NCBI GenBank assembly: GCA_017434025.1
Contig: JAFRGC010000050.1
Coordinates: forward strand, 1-64,000
DNA from: Mogibacterium sp.
GTDB taxonomy: Bacteria; Bacillota; Clostridia; Peptostreptococcales; Anaerovoracaceae
DNA length: 64,000 nt
Direction: 5' to 3'
Shown: in pieces, positions 34,968 through 45,223 of the stretch
Position numbering within the stretch: position 1 is the stretch's first letter
Layout: each line of letters begins with the position of its first letter
Position numbers and translations under genes: made by a program
Notes under the pieces: model-generated
The model's input: the letters and a program-made list of their open reading frames with translations, nothing else
Databases searched by the model: none
Told to the model about the DNA's origin: nothing

Positions 34968-35298
34968 TGAACTGCGCAAGATCATCTCCGGTAAGAGCGG
35001 TTCGGAGATGGTTGAGGCAGCTGTGTCTTTGCCGGTAATGATCCTTACGGCAATGCTGCTGATACGGGTCTTCACATTTTACCTCGAAATACTGGAAACA
35101 GGCATCAGTGAACATATGCAGGCACTCGATGCCTGGGACAGTTATTCGGGAGCACCTGTCAGGACTTACAGTGATACGGAAGATGTGTATTTGCTGAGAG
35201 GAGGGGTACTTCTGACTGATCTTTGCAAACGGATCGATACAAGGTCATACCTTATCAACGAAGATATGCTGGTCAGGGCGGGTGATGCGCTTGGTTAA
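34951..35298 (+). CDS. TadE-like pseudopilin
   Basis: 115 residues from ATG 34951, which lies within the pilin gene (17-bp overlap). The Gly-Ser-Glu-Met-Val-Glu-Ala-Ala-Val motif followed by a hydrophobic helix is the TadE signature; the rest is a small extracellular domain. Expected to be a minor pilus component processed like the pilin. Confidence 0.8.
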   Translation: MRPISDELRKIISGKSGSEMVEAAVSLPVMILTAMLLIRVFTFYLEILETGISEHMQALDAWDSYSGAPVRTYSDTEDVYLLRGGVLLTDLCKRIDTRSYLINEDMLVRAGDALG

Positions 35299-36613
35299 GC
35301 AATTGATAAACCGCAGGGGATCATCAGCAGTATTTCTGGCCATGGCATTTACAGCTTTTGCGATATGTATCGTCGGAAGTATCGGGATCTCGAGACAGAT
35401 GGTCATTCAAAGTGAATGTGAAGCCTTCGGCAAGATCTGGACACGAGCGATCCTTTCGGAATATGACAGGCATTTGCTCAGCGATTATGGAATAATGGCG
35501 TACTTTGGAAATGAAATTGAAGTAAGAAATCGAATCGATCACTATCTCGGATACTCAGCTGAAGGGAAGCTGGATGCAGATTTCGGCAAGACCGGCGCAG
35601 ATCTTACAGGATATGAACTCGGAGAACCGGATAATTTCCGTACTGCTATGAAGAAAGGTGCTGCAGGAACGGTAGTGGGATCATTGATCAACGGAGTATC
35701 GCGGACAATAAGAGAAAATGCAATCAATAGCGGCGATGAAAGTATTTCCGGGGAAGTTGAAGACCGAAAGATAAACAATACAGTCGTATTGGATACTTTG
35801 CCGTCTGCGGGAATAGGAAATTCTATTGATACTGATTCAATTATCGAGAGGGCGAAGTCACTGGGAGAAAGTGGTTCTCCGATGTCACTGATTTCAGGTG
35901 CGGGTGTAGATGTAGCATTCATCTGGCAGCACTTTGGAAATAATGTAACGGTTTCTGATGGCGGGAAAGCATATTTCAGAAATGAATGGGAATATATCCT
36001 CTGCGGAAAACCTTCTGACGAAACTAACCTTAAGTCATGCAGACGCAAGCTGTTCCTGATCCGAAATGCACTGGATCTGGCATCACTCTATAAGGATCCT
36101 GCGAAAGTGGAGATCCTTATGACAACAGCAGAACTGATAACACCTGGGTTTGGAACTGCAACACAGGTACTGCTGGCAGAAGCCTGGGCAGCACTGGAAG
36201 CAGAAAAAGATCTGGAAGATCTATATGAGGGGAATCAGGTGCCTGTTCTTAAATCATCGGACGAATGGAAGACTGGCCTTGACCGGGTTCTGGACAGTGA
36301 ATCTGTAAGAAAGCAGCTGGATGAAGAAGCCAGGGGGCTTCTGGATGAAAATCGTGATGAACTGAAGCAATTGGATGGTATCAGAACGGCAGGTGATGTA
36401 CTTACCAAAGGGCTGAACTATGATGAACACCTGCTGCTCATGATACTCAGCATGAAGGAAAGCACAAGGCTGCTCAGGATCATGGATCTGGTTCAGATTA
36501 ACATGAAATACAGATATTACAGAGACTTCGACCTTATGGAATATTACGTGGGCGTAAGATACACCATCAGGGCTCAGGGAAGAGACTATTATTTTGAGGA
36601 CAGCTATAAGTGA
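35285..36613 (+). CDS. DUF5702-type Tad-associated surface protein
   Basis: 442 residues. One N-terminal helix (about 10-33) follows an Arg-Arg-Gly-Ser-Ser-Ala motif, as in TadG-like pseudopilins, and the remaining 400 residues are predicted outside. It begins with two aromatic/charged stretches (Arg-His-Leu-Leu-Ser-Asp-Tyr-Gly) typical of the DUF5702 family found in clostridial Tad loci. GTG 35282 directly precedes ATG 35285; either may serve. Overlaps both neighbours. Confidence 0.7.
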   Translation: MRLVKQLINRRGSSAVFLAMAFTAFAICIVGSIGISRQMVIQSECEAFGKIWTRAILSEYDRHLLSDYGIMAYFGNEIEVRNRIDHYLGYSAEGKLDADFGKTGADLTGYELGEPDNFRTAMKKGAAGTVVGSLINGVSRTIRENAINSGDESISGEVEDRKINNTVVLDTLPSAGIGNSIDTDSIIERAKSLGESGSPMSLISGAGVDVAFIWQHFGNNVTVSDGGKAYFRNEWEYILCGKPSDETNLKSCRRKLFLIRNALDLASLYKDPAKVEILMTTAELITPGFGTATQVLLAEAWAALEAEKDLEDLYEGNQVPVLKSSDEWKTGLDRVLDSESVRKQLDEEARGLLDENRDELKQLDGIRTAGDVLTKGLNYDEHLLLMILSMKESTRLLRIMDLVQINMKYRYYRDFDLMEYYVGVRYTIRAQGRDYYFEDSYK

Positions 36614-37380
36614 CAGACATGCGTAAGTGTTATTTCCCTATCAAGAGAGGCAGTTACATCGTGGAAGCAGCAATAACAGTACCTGCTTTCATAATAGCAA
36701 TCGTAGTGATGAGCTCAATCATCCTGATGTATGCGTGTATCGAGGACTGTAACTTCATTGCTGCAAGCGAATTAAGAAGAGCTGCGGCAACAGCGTCTTA
36801 TGCAGATACATCACTACTGCTGCCGGTAAAACTCAGAAGGAGATTTATTGACGACCACTCACAGGTGTCATCAGTTACAATCAGAGATTTTGGATGCAGA
36901 GATTCTAGATGGGGGCAGGATGAACTGATTGCGATCACAGCGAGGCTTCATCTGAAAACAAACAATCCTCTTGGAATTAAAGCTGCAGCAGATTACGACG
37001 TTTCACTTGTGACCAGAGCGTACGTCGGAAGGACCAGGGATGTTGAGCCAATGTCTGAGGGGGAAATGTCAGGTGATGATGCGATCCCGGTATACATTTT
37101 CCCGTTAAGGGGTGAGAGATATCACAGCAAAGGATGCACTTTCCTGAGAGCGGCTTCGAAGTCTGCAACACTTACATATTCAATCAGATCGCATTATTCA
37201 TCATGTCCGGTTTGCAGGAGCAGGTCTGCTTCGATCGGGAGCCGGATCTATTATTTTCCTGAATACGGAGAATCGTATCATCTTCCCGGCTGTGCATCAC
37301 TTGAACGGAACTATATTGAAATTGACCGAAGAGATGCGATCGAAAGAGGATATTCTCCCTGTTCCAAATGCGGAGGTTGA
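36610..37380 (+). CDS. TadE-like pseudopilin with tandem Cys/His motifs
   Basis: 256 residues. Gly-Ser-Tyr-Ile-Val-Glu-Ala-Ala and a membrane helix (about 20-42) mark a TadE-type protein. The C-terminus adds two copies of a Tyr-His-x-x-Gly-Cys...Cys-x-x-Cys pattern: the first at about 177-210, the second at about 226-255, the latter ending Tyr-Ser-Pro-Cys-Ser-Lys-Cys. The pattern resembles small Ada-like zinc-binding modules often attached to secreted nucleases. Start is GTG 36610 overlapping the previous stop, or ATG 36619. Confidence 0.7.
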   Translation: MTDMRKCYFPIKRGSYIVEAAITVPAFIIAIVVMSSIILMYACIEDCNFIAASELRRAAATASYADTSLLLPVKLRRRFIDDHSQVSSVTIRDFGCRDSRWGQDELIAITARLHLKTNNPLGIKAAADYDVSLVTRAYVGRTRDVEPMSEGEMSGDDAIPVYIFPLRGERYHSKGCTFLRAASKSATLTYSIRSHYSSCPVCRSRSASIGSRIYYFPEYGESYHLPGCASLERNYIEIDRRDAIERGYSPCSKCGG

Positions 37381-37398
37381 TGACAGGAGGAAATCAAA

Positions 37399-37932
37399 GT
37401 GAAAGAGATTGATCAGAGACTGAGCGGATTCAGAATGCCGGCCTATGTAGAAGAGATACTGACACATCATTACTGCCCGTATTTCATGAGAATGAGCATT
37501 ATACGGGACAAAGATCAATACAGATTCCTTTACAGGCCAGGCAGCCTTGCAAAGATCAATATGGCTGGTCTAAGCACATATGACAAATTAGTACTAATAA
37601 GAAGTCTGATAAGCATAAGCACGAAGATTACCGGATTCATGCTGAGATGTAACAGCTATCTGCTTGAACCGGAGCTTATCTATTCATACGCGGGGAGAGT
37701 TACAGAGGATAGTATCAGAATCATGTTCTATCCGGATGTAAAAAATATGGATATAAGGATCAAATTGATGCTTTTCTCTGAAAGGATCAGAGGGGATCAG
37801 AGTAAAGAAGAGCGTGAGCTGTTCAATCAGCTGAGAGAGTTACTGGAAAGCGAAGATATCAACAGAGCGGCTTTGTTTCTGGACAAAGTGTTACTTCGCA
37901 TGGAAGGCCGGATGCTGGATCAGGCAGGATAA
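37399..37932 (+). CDS. DUF6382-like protein at the end of the Tad operon
   Basis: 177 residues, no signal peptide or membrane helix, GTG start with ACAGGAGGAAA. The Phe-Leu-Tyr-Arg-Pro-Gly and Leu-Leu-Glu-Pro-Glu-Leu-Ile-Tyr segments resemble DUF6382 proteins. In other Clostridia these end in an FHA domain, but here that domain is absent. It is likely cytoplasmic and may connect the Tad machine to signalling; this is inference. Confidence 0.55.
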   Translation: MKEIDQRLSGFRMPAYVEEILTHHYCPYFMRMSIIRDKDQYRFLYRPGSLAKINMAGLSTYDKLVLIRSLISISTKITGFMLRCNSYLLEPELIYSYAGRVTEDSIRIMFYPDVKNMDIRIKLMLFSERIRGDQSKEERELFNQLRELLESEDINRAALFLDKVLLRMEGRMLDQAG

Positions 37933-37989: not shown

Positions 37990-39414
37990 ATGAGAAAACA
38001 CATAAGTATTTTAACGATGATCGTCATGACAATTCTGATGATCGTTCCGATGACTGCGTTTGCAGCTGAACATGACAGTACAGAAGACAGATCATCTGAC
38101 ACGGCTACGATCTACATAGGCAAAGTCCTTACCGTCAATCAGAACAACAAGTTCCCTTCAGTAAATGATTTTACATTTCAGCTGGAAGCAGTAAGAGCAT
38201 GGGACAATGCTAACGTCAAATCGAACCTCAGCGGAGCAGATATCGGTGCAGAGGAAATGCCAATGCCTGCAGCGGTTACCACTGCTCATCAGAAGGTAAC
38301 ACCTACAGGAACAACTGCAGCGGTGACAGCAGGAGATTTCATGGGAGCGGCAAATACATCGGTGGCAGATACAGCAGTTGAAAAATACAGGGCGACACCG
38401 GTCAGGATCAAGTTCACGAAAGCCGGGTATTACATGTACAGCGTGTCAGAAACCGGTTCATCACCGGAGAATATACCAGGTGTCACGTATGACGAAAGCA
38501 GTTACTATATCGTAGTTTATGTATGCAACCGAACTGACAGCCAGGGAAATACTATTCCGGGCGTGTATGTTCATGACATAACATCTTACAGGAATACAGC
38601 GGATACTGATGTTCAGCCTGACCTGTCAGATATCCAGAATGTTACAGATAATAACGGAACAGCTGCCAAAGATAACATTTATACAAATTTCGAGAAAACA
38701 GGGAAGTCCACACCTGAACATCCGGACCAGTTAGAAGCCTATAGATTCTGGAATGATCAGACAACACATGATGTTGTAATAACCAAGAATGTAACGGGTA
38801 ATCTCGGCGATATCACGAAGGAATTTGAAATGACTGTTACACTGACAGGCTTGGAAAAAAACAAGACATATACAACTGATGTTGCAGCAGAATTCAAGAC
38901 CGAACAGAATACAACATCACAAGGCGCAGATATCGTGAGCGCTTCCGTTGGATCTGTGAACTCCGCAGGTAAAACATTTACCGCTGATGCTTCCGGTAAT
39001 GCGACATTTTTGATCAAGCTTGCAGATAACGAAGTCCTGGTACTCAATGCGCTGCCTGCGTCTTCAAATTACAAAGTAGAAGAACATGCGACCGATCATG
39101 TCGGAAGCTATAAAGTGACATCAACCAGTAACTCTGCTGTGATAGCGTCTGCACAGGGGGCAAATACAGGAGACAGGACTGCGATCGCAACTGCTGTAGA
39201 GACTGTAGATGCTGTTTCCAATGTAACCGGGAGGACAAACTCTGAGAGTAATGATGGAACTGTCACTATTGCATTTACCAATCACAGAGACCTTGCGGTT
39301 ATAACAGGTCTGCCTTATTACGGAGATTTCGTCTATGTTCTGGCGGCGTTGATGATAGTTTTCATAGGTGCATTTGCAGTGTACAGGCACAGAACAAGGT
39401 CTGAGGATATTTAA
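37990..39414 (+). CDS. FctA/Spy0128-like sortase-anchored pilin
   Basis: 474 residues. Signal peptide ending Ala-Phe-Ala-Ala (about 26). Domain 1 (about 38-210) is a streptococcal pilin isopeptide domain, with Ile-Gly-Lys near its start and Gly-Tyr-Tyr-Met-Tyr-Ser-Val-Ser-Glu and Tyr-Tyr-Ile-Val-Val-Tyr-Val. Domain 2 (about 255-435) has Ile-Thr-Lys-Asn-Val-Thr-Gly-Asn, Val-Glu-Glu and Phe-Thr-Asn-His-Arg, the Lys/Glu/Asn set for an intramolecular isopeptide bond. The C-terminus reads Leu-Ala-Val-Ile-Thr-Gly, a membrane helix and Arg-His-Arg: a non-LPXTG sorting signal. Likely the major shaft pilin, since it is first in the operon. Confidence 0.85.
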   Translation: MRKHISILTMIVMTILMIVPMTAFAAEHDSTEDRSSDTATIYIGKVLTVNQNNKFPSVNDFTFQLEAVRAWDNANVKSNLSGADIGAEEMPMPAAVTTAHQKVTPTGTTAAVTAGDFMGAANTSVADTAVEKYRATPVRIKFTKAGYYMYSVSETGSSPENIPGVTYDESSYYIVVYVCNRTDSQGNTIPGVYVHDITSYRNTADTDVQPDLSDIQNVTDNNGTAAKDNIYTNFEKTGKSTPEHPDQLEAYRFWNDQTTHDVVITKNVTGNLGDITKEFEMTVTLTGLEKNKTYTTDVAAEFKTEQNTTSQGADIVSASVGSVNSAGKTFTADASGNATFLIKLADNEVLVLNALPASSNYKVEEHATDHVGSYKVTSTSNSAVIASAQGANTGDRTAIATAVETVDAVSNVTGRTNSESNDGTVTIAFTNHRDLAVITGLPYYGDFVYVLAALMIVFIGAFAVYRHRTRSEDI

Positions 39415-40151
39415 TGTATGAAGATCATTTTAGCCGGAAGATCAAATGGATCACCATGGCAGAGGCGGTTTTCAGCCGGTTGATATTACTGGGACTTATC
39501 ACCATGAGTGCATTTGTTATCTATGCAGCTTATGACATGCACAGGATCACAGCAAACGGGAAAAGCGGAACTGAATTCCATGATTTCGAGGAATTGATTG
39601 CAAGAAATCCGGATACCGTAGCCTGGATAAAACTGGACAGCACATCGATAGATCATCCTGTTGTACAGGGAAAGGACAATTATACATATCTGGATGTCGA
39701 TTTTGATGGCAATGATTATGCAGGAGGATGCATCTTTCTGGATGCATCCTCATCCAGTGATCTGTCAGATGAATATTCAGTGATACACGGACATCATATG
39801 GCAGGCGGCGCAATGTTCGGAGATCTGGAAAAGTTTCTGGATCAGGAATTCCTTGATGAAAACAATACAGGGGAATTGCTGACACCGGGAGACATTTATG
39901 ATTTGACCATAGCAGGAGCGGGGATATTTGATGCGTATGATGGTGAGATATACAGCGCAGGACCTTCAAGAAACATCCCACTGGAACTCATTGATAAATG
40001 CAGCACTAAGAATATGATTCATTTCTCGAATCAAGACAAAATGATAGCTTTGTCTACCTGTTCCGGAGAAATGAACAATAACAGAATATTGGTAATCTGC
40101 ATAGCGCATCGAAGAGGAACTAATGAAATGCAGCAAGGGCATGATAAATAA
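39414..40151 (+). CDS. Class B sortase (pilus polymerase type)
   Basis: 245 residues. N-terminal membrane anchor (about 18-40), then the class B sortase fold. Catalytic residues: His127 in Gly-His-His-Met, Cys216 in Ser-Thr-Cys-Ser, Arg224 in Asn-Asn-Arg-Ile. In the S. pyogenes FCT locus a class B enzyme (SrtC1) polymerises the T-antigen pilin; the same role is inferred here. Its ATG overlaps the pilin stop (TAATG). Confidence 0.92.
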   Translation: MYEDHFSRKIKWITMAEAVFSRLILLGLITMSAFVIYAAYDMHRITANGKSGTEFHDFEELIARNPDTVAWIKLDSTSIDHPVVQGKDNYTYLDVDFDGNDYAGGCIFLDASSSSDLSDEYSVIHGHHMAGGAMFGDLEKFLDQEFLDENNTGELLTPGDIYDLTIAGAGIFDAYDGEIYSAGPSRNIPLELIDKCSTKNMIHFSNQDKMIALSTCSGEMNNNRILVICIAHRRGTNEMQQGHDK

Positions 40152-40671
40152 GAGCAGATCATATACATCAGATAGAAATCTTTACTACAAAATGGTGAGA
40201 CAACTGGCAATAGAGATATCAGTTGTATGTACTGTAATGATCATAATGCTTACCTGTGTGATCGGAATAACTGTACAGATGGGCAACGATATGTTTCCTT
40301 CAATAAAAGACGGAGATATCGTGATCTATTACAGGACAACACGTCTGCTTCCTACCGAAACTGTAGTTTACAGAACCTATGACGGAATTCATACCGGAAG
40401 GATCGCAGCTGCTTCCGGAGCATTGATCAGTGAAACAGGTGATCACCAACTCACTGTAGACGGCATTTATCAGCCGGTTTCGATAAGAGATGGTATCTAT
40501 AGTCTTACATATTCCGGGGAGAAACTCGATCTTCCTTTAACGATAGGCCAAGATCAGTTTTTTATCCTGAATGATAATCGTGACAGGATGGATGACAGCA
40601 GAACTTACGGAGCGATAGATACCGGAAAAGTATCCGGAAGAGTTATATCAGTTTTCCGGATAAGAATATAA
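40123..40671 (+). CDS. SipA-like inactive signal peptidase I, pilus chaperone
   Basis: 182 residues with one N-terminal membrane helix (about 27-52) and a signal peptidase I fold. The catalytic Ser of the Ser-Met-x-Pro motif is Asp56 (Asn-Asp-Met-Phe-Pro-Ser), and the catalytic Lys position is Gly92 (Thr-Gly-Arg-Ile). S. pyogenes SipA, needed for T-antigen pilus assembly, carries the same Asp and Gly replacements. The late Asn-Asp-Asn-Arg-Asp-x-Met-Asp-Asp-Ser-Arg box is intact, so the fold is kept. It overlaps the sortase gene by 29 bp. Proposed role: non-proteolytic pilin assembly factor. Confidence 0.88.
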   Translation: MKCSKGMINKSRSYTSDRNLYYKMVRQLAIEISVVCTVMIIMLTCVIGITVQMGNDMFPSIKDGDIVIYYRTTRLLPTETVVYRTYDGIHTGRIAAASGALISETGDHQLTVDGIYQPVSIRDGIYSLTYSGEKLDLPLTIGQDQFFILNDNRDRMDDSRTYGAIDTGKVSGRVISVFRIRI

Positions 40672-40701: not shown

Positions 40702-43119
40702 ATGCGAAAGATACCGTTTATGGCAACATTGATCTTTGGATTGATCCAGTTGTCAGCTTTCTGTGTCAGTGCGTCCGGGCTTCCCGCTGTTACAGTTAAT
40801 ATCCCGGTGGAACATATCATAACCGGGGATGAATATATCGGAGATGAATCTTTTTCATTTGTACTTGAAGCAGAGAACCATTCTGACCCAATGCCAGATG
40901 GTTCATCTGACGGCATGAAAAAAGTGACATCAACCGGGTCCGGGAAAGTAGATTTTGGAGATATCGTCTTCAGCTACCCGGATGCTTATTACTATAGGAT
41001 GTACAGAATGCCCGAAGAGGACACGGAGCTTGAAAGAGACGAATCAGCTTACCGTATCATGATTGCAGCTTATTCAGATGGTTCCTCAGGGATCACCATA
41101 TGGAAAGAAGGAGAAGACGGGAAGACAGACAGCATTGTTTTCGAAGATAAATATACCAGGCCTGTCATACCGGAAAAGAAAAGAATAATCCCGAAAACAG
41201 GGGATCCTAACTCTTTTGCAGGATGGCTGATCACAATGACTGCAGCTCTTGGAGGAATGCTGAGCCTGATAATGAAGCACAGAAAGATTGATAAAAACAG
41301 ATCCGTATTGAAGCATATTCGATCAGATAAGCTGCCTGCACTTTTCATTACAGCAACTGTTACTGCCTGCCTTATATGTTCAAGTGCTTTCCAGATAACT
41401 TTTGCATTGGAGGGCGAATCTGTTCCGGAGGAAACTCAGACTGTACAAACTGAGATCGCCGATTCCGTTCAGGAATCAGAGGATACTTCAGTAGAACAGC
41501 AGGAAATAGATGCCGGAGAAGAAGATCCGGGAGCCCAGGAAACTTCTCAAGATGAAACGGAGGAAATCCAGCCAGAAGGAAAAGACGAGGAGATGCTGCC
41601 TGAGAGTGGTGATAGCGTATCTGAAGGTAATGAAGAAATAGAGAACAGTATCGATTATGATGATCCTGTTCCGCAGGTTGTGCCTAAACGATTGCTGGCT
41701 GCTGCAGCCATGACAGGCAAAATAGTCAGTTCTTACAGTGATGGCAAAGGAAGAAGATTCCGGATGGAAGGTATGGAAGGGATCGCTTTGTGTTCATGGG
41801 ACAGTAAAACGCCTGCACCTGATGGATCTTCCGGAACATATCGGGAGATCACCGCAGATACTGCTGCAAAACAGAATGTGATCAAAGTCATGTATTACGG
41901 AATCAAAAAGAATGCAGCTGATACACCACTCAAAAAATTAAGGGTACACAGAATGATTTGCTATTGGCTGCATGGAGTATCCAGTCTGCGGGATGAAGCA
42001 AGAGAACAGCTCCCGAGAGCACAGAGCTATGTGAAGCAGTTCACAGACAAACCTCTGCCTCCAGCATCCGAGAGATTTCAGGTCTTTGAATGGACTCCGC
42101 TTGGCAATTACAGCGATAAACAGACTATTGTAGCGTACCGTAAAGCGCCATATGTCAGAACACCGGAGTACAGATCAGAGAAGAAGCCTGACAGAAAGTT
42201 TATTCGATATGGAAGTACTGAGAAAATCGGATATACCATCAGGACGGAAGAAATCTATACTGACGCCGGAGCAGGCAGTTTCTGCATCAAGGACGATTTG
42301 GCTAGAGGACTGCTTCATCTGGACGCAGATTCAATTTCCATAGCAGTATCCGGCGGATCATATTCGATAGACAAGAGCGATGATTCGGGCCTTTGGATCA
42401 CATTCAGGTCAGAAGCAGCTAACGGCAGCAAACCATATATCAAAGTGAGCTATAAAGCAACTGTGAACTGGGATGCATACACAGGCGGCGATATCCGGAA
42501 TGCACTGACAGACTATACTCCTGAACCTGTGAGAGTAACAACAGATATATCACTGCAAAAAGAGGTCAGAGGCAACCTGCGTGATACGACCAAGAAATTC
42601 GAATTTACAGTTGAACTGACCGGACTGGATTCAGAACAGATCTATTCTGTAGAAACGAATGGAGGCGGGGAATTATTCCGGGCATCAACAGGAACTCTGG
42701 ATGGAGCGGGGTTCAAGCCCGATGCAAGCGGAAACGCTGAGGTCATATTCAAGCTCAAAGGCGGACAAGGTGCTGTAATAAAAGATCTGCCGATAGGCGG
42801 CACATATCGGGTTACCGAAACTGAAAATGATCACCGAGCATCTTATATGATAAACGCAGACGGGAATACTCCGATGATAGTAAAGGATCATGATTCAAAT
42901 GATATTAATCAAAAGATCCTCTCTACAGAATCAGAAACGATCGATCCCGGTGATGGTATAGCGACGATAGTTTTCACAAATACCAGGGAAATAGCACCGA
43001 CTTCAGGAATAGTGGGTTCTATCGATTGGAGATTTGCTGGAATATGCAGCTTGAGTGTTCTGTCTGCTGCAGCAGCCTTTGTAATAAGGAGGAAGCTGAG
43101 GTGCAGAAATGGTTATTGA
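40702..43119 (+). CDS. Tandem surface protein: minor pilin joined to adhesin, two signal peptides and two sorting signals
   Basis: 805 residues in one uninterrupted frame. Part A (1-200): signal peptide, a small pilin domain, the sorting signal Ile-Pro-Lys-Thr-Gly (163-167), a membrane helix and a basic tail. Part B begins at Met191 with Lys/Arg-rich residues and a second hydrophobic stretch (213-235) like another signal peptide, then an acidic Glu/Gln/Asp linker (238-330), an adhesin-like region with Cys-Ser-Trp and Met-Tyr-Tyr-Gly-Ile resembling a thioester domain, a Spy0128-like isopeptide domain (about 615-765) and a terminal signal Glu-Ile-Ala-Pro-Thr-Ser-Gly, helix and basic tail. It looks like two former genes with the stop lost between them. 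ATG 41272 could allow separate translation of part B. Confidence 0.8.
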   Translation: MRKIPFMATLIFGLIQLSAFCVSASGLPAVTVNIPVEHIITGDEYIGDESFSFVLEAENHSDPMPDGSSDGMKKVTSTGSGKVDFGDIVFSYPDAYYYRMYRMPEEDTELERDESAYRIMIAAYSDGSSGITIWKEGEDGKTDSIVFEDKYTRPVIPEKKRIIPKTGDPNSFAGWLITMTAALGGMLSLIMKHRKIDKNRSVLKHIRSDKLPALFITATVTACLICSSAFQITFALEGESVPEETQTVQTEIADSVQESEDTSVEQQEIDAGEEDPGAQETSQDETEEIQPEGKDEEMLPESGDSVSEGNEEIENSIDYDDPVPQVVPKRLLAAAAMTGKIVSSYSDGKGRRFRMEGMEGIALCSWDSKTPAPDGSSGTYREITADTAAKQNVIKVMYYGIKKNAADTPLKKLRVHRMICYWLHGVSSLRDEAREQLPRAQSYVKQFTDKPLPPASERFQVFEWTPLGNYSDKQTIVAYRKAPYVRTPEYRSEKKPDRKFIRYGSTEKIGYTIRTEEIYTDAGAGSFCIKDDLARGLLHLDADSISIAVSGGSYSIDKSDDSGLWITFRSEAANGSKPYIKVSYKATVNWDAYTGGDIRNALTDYTPEPVRVTTDISLQKEVRGNLRDTTKKFEFTVELTGLDSEQIYSVETNGGGELFRASTGTLDGAGFKPDASGNAEVIFKLKGGQGAVIKDLPIGGTYRVTETENDHRASYMINADGNTPMIVKDHDSNDINQKILSTESETIDPGDGIATIVFTNTREIAPTSGIVGSIDWRFAGICSLSVLSAAAAFVIRRKLRCRNGY

Positions 43120-45223
43120 ACACAGACGTCTAGTGTCATGCTTGACCGTTGCTTTGATTTCTATAGTTATTATAGCTTCGGGTGCGCAGAATGTTCTGGC
43201 AGCAGGAGTATATGGCGGATATATCAAAGGGAAGACGGATACTTCAACCAACTATTGGCGCGGATATGCTGAATACACCGTCAGTTCCACAGCTACTACA
43301 TATACGGTAACTGTTACCAAAGTCCAGATCAATATCGTGAGTTCCGGCTATAGTATACAGGGAGGTTATGCCAAAGCTTCAGTCAGCGCTACAGGCAGCC
43401 CATCCTCAAGTGGAACCAAGACAGGAGAAAACAGTTCCAAAATCAGTTCAAAGGGAAATCACACACTCATCAGCAGCAGTTCGACATGGACCTGGAATAA
43501 GACAACTGAAGCAAAAACATATTACATAAATGCTGACGTCAAGGTGATTGGAAATGTAGCCCCAGGTACATCAACAGCCAAAATTACAGTCAATGTGCCT
43601 GCGCTTGCTAAATATACTATGACATATAATATGAATGGAGGTGCAGGCAGCTGTCCGTCACAGACGGCCTACCACGGCAGGACGTACACTATCCCTGCAT
43701 CATATGTTCCTGTCAGGGCAGGATACACCTTTACCGGATGGAAAGCCGGAAACGGGAATACATATCAGCCGGGTTCTTCCATTACAGCAACCGGCAGTAT
43801 TTCTTTTACTGCTCAATGGGAAAAAGCTGATTATACTGTAGTTTTTCATCCCGGGGCTGATGATGCTGCTGGTGTGATGCCTGATCAGATTCTGACCAGA
43901 GACACACATCAGACGCTTGAGCCGGGAAATTATGTACGGGCAGGATACAGACTCATAGGCTGGGAGAATGCTTCAGGTGTATTTATAGCTGATGATGGCG
44001 GCCAGGTGATAAACATAGGAGAGGCAGGCAGTGTCGTTGATTTATACGCGGTATGGGAGGAAATAGGCGCAGCAGATGCGGATATCGTGATAGGCAAGAT
44101 GCTCACTACAGGATCAGCAGCTGAAAGTTTTAGTTTCAGACTGGAGGCTGTTGAAGGATGGTCTCATGAAAATGAGTCAACATTCAGATCCGGAACGAGA
44201 TTTACTGCAGAGCAGATGCCGATGCCGGAGGGAACTCAACAGGGTAAGATATATAAGGATGTTGAAATCAACGGATTTGCAGGCAGCTATAATGTCATGA
44301 TCACTAAGAGTGTCGGGCTGATAACATTCGAGAACCCCGGTTGGTACATGTACAGCATCAGGGAGCTGATCCCTGATGATCCGGTGCCTGGCCTGAAATA
44401 TGACAGAAGCAGTTATTATGCAGTGATATATGTGGATTACATTGATGATAACAGCAAACAGATCGAAGTCAGAAATATAACAGCATGGCATAACAGTTCC
44501 GGATCCGGCAGAAACAGACCGAACCTTACTGATATAGCAGAGATAAGCGACAACGGAGGGCACGCAGCGAAACAGAATGATTCAGCAGGAATTTATGGAA
44601 AAGTGGGTATAGGCAAGAATTCTCTGGCCGCATATAGATTCTGGAACTCTCAGGAGACTGGTTCTTTCAAGGTGTCCAAGCAAGTCAAAGGATCACTGGG
44701 AGACCTGTCCAAAGAGTTCGAATTTACAGCTGTAATAAGAGGTCTTGTGCCTTCTGCGACATATGCGATACATAATGACGGCGCAGTGCCGACAGATGGT
44801 TTTGATTCCGGCGGGACATCATTTACAACAGACGGAACCGGATGTGCTGTCCTGCAGTTCAGGCTCAGAGATGATGATGGATTTGAATTTGACGGACTGC
44901 CGGCTGATGCAAGTTTTGAAGTAACTGAGGCAGAAAGTGATCATTATCCGTCCTATTCAGTGAGCAAGACAGGAGAGGAGATAAGGGCAGAAGAAAAGCA
45001 CCGACATACATCACTTTCAACAGGCGTTGTAGAAGTGACAGATATCGATGCTTACACAGTTGAGTTTGTTAATGAAAGGGAGCTTGCTCCGGTTACAGGT
45101 ACCGCTGGCAGGAATACTCCTGCTGCCTCAATTATTATACTGCTCCTTATACCATGTATTGTTTTAGCTGTTCTGCGATCCTGTAATATGGCAGACCTAC
45201 TACGTTTTCGTAATCGCCATTGA
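43109..45223 (+). CDS. Large pilin-adhesin with InlB-type repeats
   Basis: 704 residues. Signal peptide (to about 32), a Ser/Thr-rich beta domain (33-165), two Listeria-Bacteroides (InlB B) repeats (about 170-235 and 238-310; Gly-Tyr-Thr-Phe-Thr-Gly-Trp and Gly-Tyr-Arg-Leu-Ile-Gly-Trp), a domain closely similar to domain 1 of the first pilin (about 320-500; shared Met-Pro-Met-Pro, Trp-Tyr-Met-Tyr-Ser and Arg-Ser-Ser-Tyr-Tyr), a second isopeptide-type domain (about 515-660), then Glu-Leu-Ala-Pro-Val-Thr-Gly, a membrane helix and basic tail. Likely a minor or tip subunit. It overlaps the preceding gene by 11 bp and the convergent maf gene by 77 bp. Confidence 0.82.
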   Translation: MVIEHRRLVSCLTVALISIVIIASGAQNVLAAGVYGGYIKGKTDTSTNYWRGYAEYTVSSTATTYTVTVTKVQINIVSSGYSIQGGYAKASVSATGSPSSSGTKTGENSSKISSKGNHTLISSSSTWTWNKTTEAKTYYINADVKVIGNVAPGTSTAKITVNVPALAKYTMTYNMNGGAGSCPSQTAYHGRTYTIPASYVPVRAGYTFTGWKAGNGNTYQPGSSITATGSISFTAQWEKADYTVVFHPGADDAAGVMPDQILTRDTHQTLEPGNYVRAGYRLIGWENASGVFIADDGGQVINIGEAGSVVDLYAVWEEIGAADADIVIGKMLTTGSAAESFSFRLEAVEGWSHENESTFRSGTRFTAEQMPMPEGTQQGKIYKDVEINGFAGSYNVMITKSVGLITFENPGWYMYSIRELIPDDPVPGLKYDRSSYYAVIYVDYIDDNSKQIEVRNITAWHNSSGSGRNRPNLTDIAEISDNGGHAAKQNDSAGIYGKVGIGKNSLAAYRFWNSQETGSFKVSKQVKGSLGDLSKEFEFTAVIRGLVPSATYAIHNDGAVPTDGFDSGGTSFTTDGTGCAVLQFRLRDDDGFEFDGLPADASFEVTEAESDHYPSYSVSKTGEEIRAEEKHRHTSLSTGVVEVTDIDAYTVEFVNERELAPVTGTAGRNTPAASIIILLLIPCIVLAVLRSCNMADLLRFRNRH

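What the first reader, a model, noticed from the sequence alone, without database searches (positions are those of the whole stretch)
40702..43119. One reading frame encodes two complete sortase-anchored proteins back to back
Seen: residues 1-200 have a signal peptide, pilin domain, Ile-Pro-Lys-Thr-Gly, membrane helix and basic tail; from Met191 a second basic n-region, hydrophobic stretch and acidic linker begin a second surface protein that ends in its own sorting signal. The frame has no stop between them. Either two genes fused, or a polyprotein is split by signal peptidase and both halves are anchored, which would guarantee 1:1 supply of two pilus subunits. The two sorting motifs also differ (Ile-Pro-Lys-Thr-Gly versus Ala-Pro-Thr-Ser-Gly), so two sortases might be used.
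Basis: partly seen in the sequence, partly recalled or inferred. Interest (0 to 1): 0.85.

Follow-up and report, generated by a model that had tools for sequence, protein, structure and literature searches.

The report
Pilus anchor and adhesin fused
In a gut bacterium and several relatives, the anchor protein of a surface hair and the adhesin encoded next to it are written as one long chain that keeps the signals to be cut into two proteins, which could supply the two parts in equal numbers.

Summary
ORF 40702-43119 (805 aa, no stop) encodes an FctB-like basal pilin (signal peptide, pilin domain, IPKTGD, helix, basic tail), then a second signal peptide, an acidic linker and an ancillary pilin/adhesin with its own sorting signal. 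It lies in a SipA-type pilus operon. It is not a lone oddity. I fetched 20 complete sortase-SipA-fctB clusters plus one cut by a contig end: 7 of 21 are fused (4 genera, one the cultured Mogibacterium kristiansenii), 14 separate. Some fused ones were fetched because their frames were long, so the share is not a frequency. In 12 of the 14 separate clusters a signal-peptide gene overlaps or abuts fctB in another frame. The concatenated tree needs 3 changes of state: repeated fusion, or fusion with later splitting. Best reading: a polyprotein cut by sortase and signal peptidase into base pilin and adhesin. Sorting motifs of FctB (mostly PxTGD) and of the pilins differ, and the genome has three sortases, so two may be used. 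Processing, 1:1 supply and any benefit are unproven. Neutral fusion, internal initiation and, for the window alone, an assembly error remain. In 2 of 6 fused proteins with a visible end, the second half lacks an anchor.

The parts
37990..39414 (+). FctA-like major pilin (474 aa), sorting motif RDLAVITG
   Evidence: PF12892 2.3e-5, DUF7601 5e-11; motif
39414..40151 (+). class B sortase, candidate pilin polymerase
   Evidence: PF04203 above cut-off; TIGR03064 1.3e-41, 142 bits, below that model's cut-off of 153.75
40123..40671 (+). SipA-like signal-peptidase-fold protein with Asp and Gly at the catalytic Ser and Lys places
   Evidence: best solved relative SipA 4n31, 5.3e-16; alignment; residues as described for SipA in PMC4049620 (passages)
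40702..43119 (+). fused ORF, 805 aa
40819..41157 (+). FctB-like (Spy0128-like) pilin domain of the first half
   Evidence: PF12892 residues 40-152 (200-aa half alone); FctB structures 8k6t, 3klq over residues 68-169
41188..41274 (+). first sorting signal: IPKTG (163-167) and membrane helix (175-191)
   Evidence: T166 and D168 invariant, G167 nearly invariant in 15 aligned FctB sequences
41275..41331 (+). basic loop (192-210): FctB tail merged with the n-region of the second signal peptide
41332..41406 (+). second signal peptide h- and c-region (211-235), likely cut TFA|LEG (by eye)
   Evidence: hydropathy, position
41407..41676 (+). acidic linker, boundaries approximate
   Evidence: 33 D/E, 1 K/R in 90 residues; several separate genes after fctB in relatives start with a signal peptide and an acidic stretch
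41677..42141 (+). adhesin head of unknown family; thioester-domain-like by eye only
   Evidence: one weak relative, 3e-4; no Pfam thioester hit for it or for that relative; hhalign to TED_2 regions 9% probability
42208..42900 (+). stalk domains (RrgB D2-like, DUF7601)
   Evidence: residues 484-804 and 484-798 are 43% and 40% identical to stand-alone adhesins of L032 and L033
42985..43116 (+). second sorting signal REIAPTSG, helix, basic tail
43109..45223 (+). second ancillary pilin, sorting motif RELAPVTG, overlaps the fused ORF by 11 nt

Best explanation
Two neighbouring pilus genes, the basal (anchor) pilin fctB and a following signal-peptide-bearing adhesin, have fused in frame. The product is exported as a polyprotein: the first signal peptide exports the FctB domain, the first sorting-signal helix stops transfer, a short basic loop stays inside, and the second signal peptide restarts export of the adhesin. 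Two ordinary enzymes then separate the halves: a sortase between Thr and Gly of IPKTG, and signal peptidase I after residue ~235. FctB is attached to the wall at the pilus base (probably by a sortase other than the operon's), and the adhesin is joined to the pilus through its pilin-class signal by the operon's class B sortase. In the streptococcal model the adhesin sits at the tip and FctB at the base, so one chain would supply these end pieces 1:1. Shown: the fusion, the retained signals, the separate state in relatives, its spread over four genera. Inferred: topology, both cuts, tip position, stoichiometry and any benefit.
For: Open frame. FctB identity. Sortase, SipA and fctB in a row in 20 of the 39 stretches tested with HMMs (window plus 38 loci), one more cut by a contig end (L099). 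Fused in 7 of these 21: window, L031, L091, L092, L093, L094, L099. All 7 keep a TGD motif, a helix, a basic loop and a second hydrophobic segment. Second halves of L031, L093 and L092 align with stand-alone adhesins of L032, L033 and L095, with the signal peptides in register though little conserved. Fused rows as one clade are rejected (p 7e-89 for three genes, 2e-4 for FctB alone; groups chosen after seeing the data). Linkers differ between fused relatives (24-39% identical) with the frame kept. A signal peptidase I with SSM and KRAIG (read by eye) is in the genome. L031 is in a named isolate genome, Mogibacterium kristiansenii NZ_VUNA01000004.1.
Against: No protein data. L091 and L094 second halves end without a sorting signal. 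Internal starts with fair Shine-Dalgarno matches exist in M. kristiansenii (ATG, -6.0) and L091 (GTG, -8.6), so the adhesin might be made separately there. The fusion may be neutral: the joint lies in cytoplasmic tails. The tree allows one fusion with two later splits as well as repeated fusion. Stand-alone counterparts through the signal peptide were shown for 3 of the 7 fused proteins only. The window's adhesin head is not identified. Tip position rests on the streptococcal model.
Confidence: 0.62

Rival explanations
1. The fusion is real and may even be processed, but it is functionally silent: two overlapping genes drifted into one frame and nothing is gained. (This concerns the reason, so it can be true together with the best explanation.)
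For: In 12 of 14 separate clusters the next gene's earliest start candidates lie from -83 to +1 nt around the fctB stop (L095: -308), in another frame, so small length changes can fuse them; both joined ends are cytoplasmic.
Against: Spread over four genera and a frame kept over large divergence. Other compatible neighbours in the same loci were not seen fused: 0 of 28 against 7 of 19 fctB joints. But 17 of the 28 have a sortase and 3 a SipA-like protein downstream, leaving 8 fairer controls, and the loci are related.
Confidence: 0.4
2. The two halves are made mainly as separate proteins by internal initiation near the second signal peptide, and the long chain is a by-product.
For: Internal ATG in M. 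kristiansenii with -6.0 kcal/mol; GTG in L091 with -8.6; GGAGGA upstream of 41257 and 41272 in the window. Weak sites do not exclude initiation: 4 of 19 control gene starts scored only 0 to -3.5.
Against: In the window the spacing is poor for both ATGs (0-1 and about 15 nt); L094 and L099 have only weak internal sites (-3.6 and -2.5 at best).
Confidence: 0.15
3. The second hydrophobic stretch is not cleaved: the middle is a helical hairpin and the adhesin stays tethered by it until sortase acts.
For: A hairpin has the same hydropathy; in L031 and L093 the best cut (TYG|A, by eye) is plain rather than strong.
Against: The same segment is the N-terminal signal peptide of stand-alone adhesins of L032, L033 and L095; small residues at -3/-1 can be found by eye in all 7, which alone is weak.
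Confidence: 0.12
4. In the window itself the fusion is an assembly or sequencing length error joining two overlapping genes.
For: A run of five A lies in the 81-nt joint; L032 and L033 of the same genus have separate genes.
Against: Six other genomes show the join; 10 of 15 L032 ORFs and 9 of 15 L033 ORFs match single window ORFs nearly full length, with no interrupted gene seen; beyond the A run the only start codon left for a separate second gene in the joint is a TTG without a Shine-Dalgarno match.
Confidence: 0.07

Closest known systems
Streptococcus pyogenes FCT-2/FCT-3 pilus operon (Cpa, SipA/LepA, FctA, class B SrtC, FctB)
   Same: FctA-like major pilin, class B sortase, SipA-like protein without the catalytic dyad, FctB-like base pilin whose sorting motif differs from that of the polymerised pilins (PMC7900414 passages)
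   Different: FctB and an adhesin are one chain; an extra adhesin gene follows; gene order differs (streptococcal order recalled); other organisms, the family that holds Mogibacterium kristiansenii
FctB basal pilin family (3klq, 8k6t)
   Same: sequence similarity over residues 68-169, one domain, sorting signal
   Different: no stop after the sorting signal
Bacterial polyproteins with an internal signal sequence, e.g. Bradyrhizobium fbcH (cytochrome b/c1); recalled, not seen in the listings (10 of 24 papers listed)
   Same: one chain, internal signal sequence, cut by signal peptidase
   Different: there respiratory subunits; here two sortase substrates, so two unlike enzymes would cut
Viral polyproteins cut by host signal peptidase at internal signal peptides (listing and abstract starts only)
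   Same: stop-transfer followed by a signal peptide as the cutting logic
   Different: unrelated proteins and hosts

Membership tests
SipA-dependent sortase pilus operon | major pilin with Spy0128/FctA-type domain and sorting signal | tested here: met
SipA-dependent sortase pilus operon | class B sortase in the operon | tested here: met
   PF04203 above cut-off; TIGR03064 1.3e-41 though below its curated cut-off
SipA-dependent sortase pilus operon | SipA homologue with Ser->Asp and Lys->Gly | tested here: met
SipA-dependent sortase pilus operon | thioester tip adhesin | tested here: inconclusive
   window head not recognised by Pfam, one weak relative that has no thioester hit either; TED_2 above cut-off in fused relatives P0002 and P0006
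SipA-dependent sortase pilus operon | pili on the cell surface | not testable with these tools
   needs microscopy
FctB basal pilin | sequence homology to FctB | tested here: met
   3klq 5.1e-7, 8k6t 5.5e-8
FctB basal pilin | own sorting signal distinct from that of the shaft | tested here: met
   IPKTGD against RDLAVITG
FctB basal pilin | linking lysine in the last strand, proline-rich tail | not tested
FctB basal pilin | encoded as a separate protein | tested here: not met
   met in 14 of the 21 clusters
Polyprotein with internal signal peptide | single open frame with a signal-peptide-like segment after a stop-transfer helix | tested here: met
Polyprotein with internal signal peptide | cleavage into separate mature proteins | not testable with these tools
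   needs proteomics

The most novel reading that the evidence does not exclude
A bacterial pilus polyprotein that evolved more than once: the base and tip subunits, the two ends of the fibre, are translated as one chain and cut apart by two different enzymes, sortase and signal peptidase, fixing them 1:1 and delivering both to one assembly site, perhaps guided by SipA, a signal-peptidase fold without the catalytic dyad.
Probability: 0.28. Interest if true: 0.8.

Novelty: new variant of a known kind. Interest (0 to 1): 0.62.

Why it matters
How cells balance tip, shaft and base subunits of sortase pili is open (my judgement), and the exact function of SipA is called unknown in PMC7900414 (passages). 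A natural base-adhesin polyprotein in a deposited gut isolate, with separate genes in relatives, gives a direct test of whether the ratio of pilus end pieces is set by translation. It would also be a rare bacterial polyprotein with an internal signal peptide (rarity recalled).

Tried and rejected
Assembly artefact as the general explanation: rejected because of 7 fused genomes and a named isolate. Fused rows as one clade: rejected; but one fusion with two later splits needs as few changes as three fusions, so a single origin is not excluded, and on the FctB tree alone the starred branches force only 1 change. Fusion outside the family: in the rows listed for 391 genomes of the class and 393 of the order (both samples include family members) I saw no further long frame with a full-length N-terminal FctB match; both lists were cut. 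Weaker family matches were mostly not fetched, and that list was cut too. Long frames with Spy0128 matches near the end (L046, L071-L074, L100-L103) are multi-domain pilins, not fusions. L107, L108 and L110 have an FctB-like domain followed by proline-rich or low-complexity linkers and other helices; dropped. L095 looked like an extended FctB, but its tail seems an out-of-frame reading of the next gene. Adhesin head as a canonical thioester domain: not shown. The first genome-contig scan found nothing. Papers: the listings showed no natural base-adhesin pilin fusion; this covers that open-access library, those terms and the papers listed.

Full report
What is there. The frame 40702-43119 is open for 805 codons. 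Residues 1-200 carry a signal peptide, a Spy0128/FctA-type domain (PF12892, 1.3e-6 for the 200-aa half alone), IPKTGD, a helix at 175-191 and a basic tail. phmmer against solved structures gives FctB3 (8k6t, 5.5e-8) and a 'putative pilus anchoring protein' (3klq, 5.1e-7; FctB as I recall) as the best matches, over residues 68-169. A basic loop follows (192-210), then a second hydrophobic stretch (211-227) ending TFA|LEG, an acidic linker, an unidentified head, a weak RrgB D2-like domain (8e-6, below cut-off), DUF7601 and a second sorting signal REIAPTSG.

Setting. Upstream lie an FctA-like pilin, a sortase (TIGR03064 1.3e-41 at 142 bits, under that model's 153.75 cut-off; PF04203 over cut-off) and an S26-fold protein whose best solved relative is SipA (4n31, 5.3e-16). 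At the places of the catalytic Ser and Lys it has Asp and Gly. The SipA paper reports the same (Asp48, Gly85) and that SipA is essential for polymerisation (PMC4049620, passages). In the streptococcal model Cpa sits at the tip, FctA forms the shaft, and FctB is the base and stop signal, anchored by the housekeeping sortase (PMC7900414, passages). The own genome (84% complete) holds three sortases, the two outside the operon scoring as class B over the cut-off. It holds one signal peptidase I with SSM and KRAIG where the catalytic Ser and Lys belong (read by eye) and one SipW-like enzyme.

Relatives. The whole protein matched 34 of 148 genomes, own included; an FctB profile matched 193 of 349 family genomes, own included, many of them through multi-domain Spy0128 proteins. 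I fetched 18 and 20 stretches: the strong full-length FctB matches, and others picked for long frames or gene neighbourhood, so shares below are not frequencies. HMMs of FctB, SipA and sortase on the window and these 38 loci found sortase, SipA and fctB in a row on one strand in 20; a 21st, L099, starts inside fctB at a contig end. Seven of 21 are fused: the window (genus g1), L031 and L093 (g33), L091, L094 and L099 (g106), L092 (g5). Fourteen are separate: L032-L043 (12 genomes, all g1), L095 (g109) and L096 (g12). L031 is Mogibacterium kristiansenii strain WCA-MUC-591-APC-4B, contig NZ_VUNA01000004.1, and L093 a MAG contig, JAUNEW010000014.1. The isolate is deposited as DSM 106282 (PMC7738495, passages). 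Loci with another gene order (L045, L097, L098, L104, L106, L109, L140, L141) have FctB-like genes that are not fused.

The joint. In 12 of the 14 separate clusters a signal-peptide gene abuts or overlaps fctB: its earliest start candidates lie from -83 to +1 nt around the fctB stop (L095: -308), later ones also exist, and its frame differs from that of fctB in all 12. In L038 a signal-peptide gene begins 123 nt downstream in the same frame, behind a stop; its product looks unrelated. In L036 an S6-like gene follows (by eye). So close or overlapping genes are the common state and fusion is a small step away. In L031, L093 and L092 the second half aligns with stand-alone adhesins of L032, L033 and L095, the signal peptides falling in register though little conserved. 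For the window only the stalk has such counterparts; for g106 I made no such comparison. Fused linkers differ strongly between relatives (39% identical in g33, 24-32% in g106, 56-62 residues) while the frame is kept.

Control for the joint. A scan of 29 loci for 'sorting signal, short loop, second hydrophobic segment' inside a frame gave 11 candidates: the 7 fusions and 4 judged spurious by eye (a transporter-like frame twice, two implausible frames). The same script found 43 separate neighbour pairs. I left out 3 (one implausible frame, two sortases upstream). Of the rest 12 have fctB upstream and 28 another sorting-signal protein, none of these seen fused. But 17 of the 28 have a sortase and 3 a SipA-like protein downstream, so only 8 are fair controls, and the loci are related. 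I give no p-value.

History. On a tree of sortase+SipA+FctB (22 rows) the fused state needs 3 changes, also by starred branches alone; on FctB alone it needs 4, but starred branches force only 1. Three changes may be three fusions or one fusion and two splits. Forcing all fused rows into one clade is rejected (p 7e-89; 2e-4), with groups chosen after the data were seen, long branches and L099 thinly filled. On the concatenated tree the window is the only fused row in a starred set of 7 with six separate ones, so its fusion is most simply its own event; the FctB tree alone has no starred set around it.

Mechanism. The order of segments implies two exports and two stop-transfers, with only the basic loop inside. 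Sortase would cut IPKT|G and signal peptidase I the second signal peptide; either cut alone frees the halves. FctB motifs: PxTGD in 16 of 21, xTGD in 3 (L031, L091, L093), TDD in L035, not identified in L096. Pilins and adhesins mostly end in R(D/E/N)(L/I)AxxTG-like motifs, with variants such as RDTTTITG or RNGATRSG. PxTG(D/S) also ends four other proteins beside clusters L091, L092 and L094. This supports the two-sortase idea without proving it. Base and tip are the fibre's two ends, so 1:1 supply is an attractive reason for fusion, but nothing here measures it. Against a general 'both anchored' rule, L091 and L094 second halves end without helix or motif, 2 of the 6 fused proteins with a visible end; in L094 another signal-peptide adhesin follows at once.

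Internal starts. Window ATGs at residues 186 and 191 have GGAGGA too near (0-1 nt) or too far (about 15 nt); M. kristiansenii has an internal ATG at -6.0, L091 a GTG at -8.6, L093 sites to -6.1, L094 and L099 only weak ones. Starts of the fused ORFs score -7.1 to -10.3 (L099's start is missing). Of 19 other cluster gene starts, 4 score only 0 to -3.5, so a weak score does not exclude initiation.

Error check. Of 15 L032 and 15 L033 ORFs compared, 10 and 9 match single window ORFs nearly full length; L032 and L033 fctB and the following adhesin both fall in the fused ORF; the last adhesin of each matches 43109-45223 in part; one ORF of each matches only a short opposite-strand frame; 1 and 2 have no match, one of them the 162-aa acidic gene of L032. 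I saw no interrupted gene. The joint holds one run of five A. An undetected length error in the window cannot be excluded without reads, but would not explain the other six genomes.

Head. Residues 307-493 match one other genome of the 344 others searched, G045, at 3e-4, to the front of a VaFE-repeat surface protein. Thioester resemblance is by eye only: Pfam shows none for the window or that protein, and profile comparison with TED_2 regions of L091/L094/L099 is inconclusive (9%). In g106 the second halves of P0002 and P0006 carry TED_2 above cut-off.

Novelty. A known kind of pilus operon with a new gene arrangement. The listings named in Tried and rejected showed no such natural fusion. The fbcH precedent is recalled; the listings (10 of 24) and 66 did not show it.

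Noticed in passing
L094:9530-9922 (-): SipA-like gene of a fused cluster is only 130 aa and its two matched stretches skip the middle of the SipA profile (model positions 98-145).
   Followed up: no
L032:8965-9453, L033:6523-6927, L037:8534-8848, L039:4055-5029, L040-L043: Directly after fctB these 8 relatives encode a small protein (104-359 aa) with a signal peptide and acidic stretch; no sorting signal was seen in the C-termini read. The window has such an acidic stretch inside the fused ORF.
   Followed up: partly
L091:6199-10431, L094:5598-9647: Fused proteins whose second half carries TED_2 and SpaA domains but ends without sorting signal or membrane helix.
   Followed up: partly
L095:5632-6874: The fctB frame runs some 300 nt past the earliest start of the next gene in another frame, giving a low-complexity tail.
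   Followed up: no
window 35282-37932: Just upstream of the pilus operon lie three genes (443, 256 and 177 aa) syntenic in L032 and L033; they look like part of a Tad-type pilus set (from memory, not tested).
   Followed up: no
G000:C57:2607-3419 (L136): A further class B sortase lies between genes that look like conjugation or mobile-element proteins (neighbours judged by eye).
   Followed up: no
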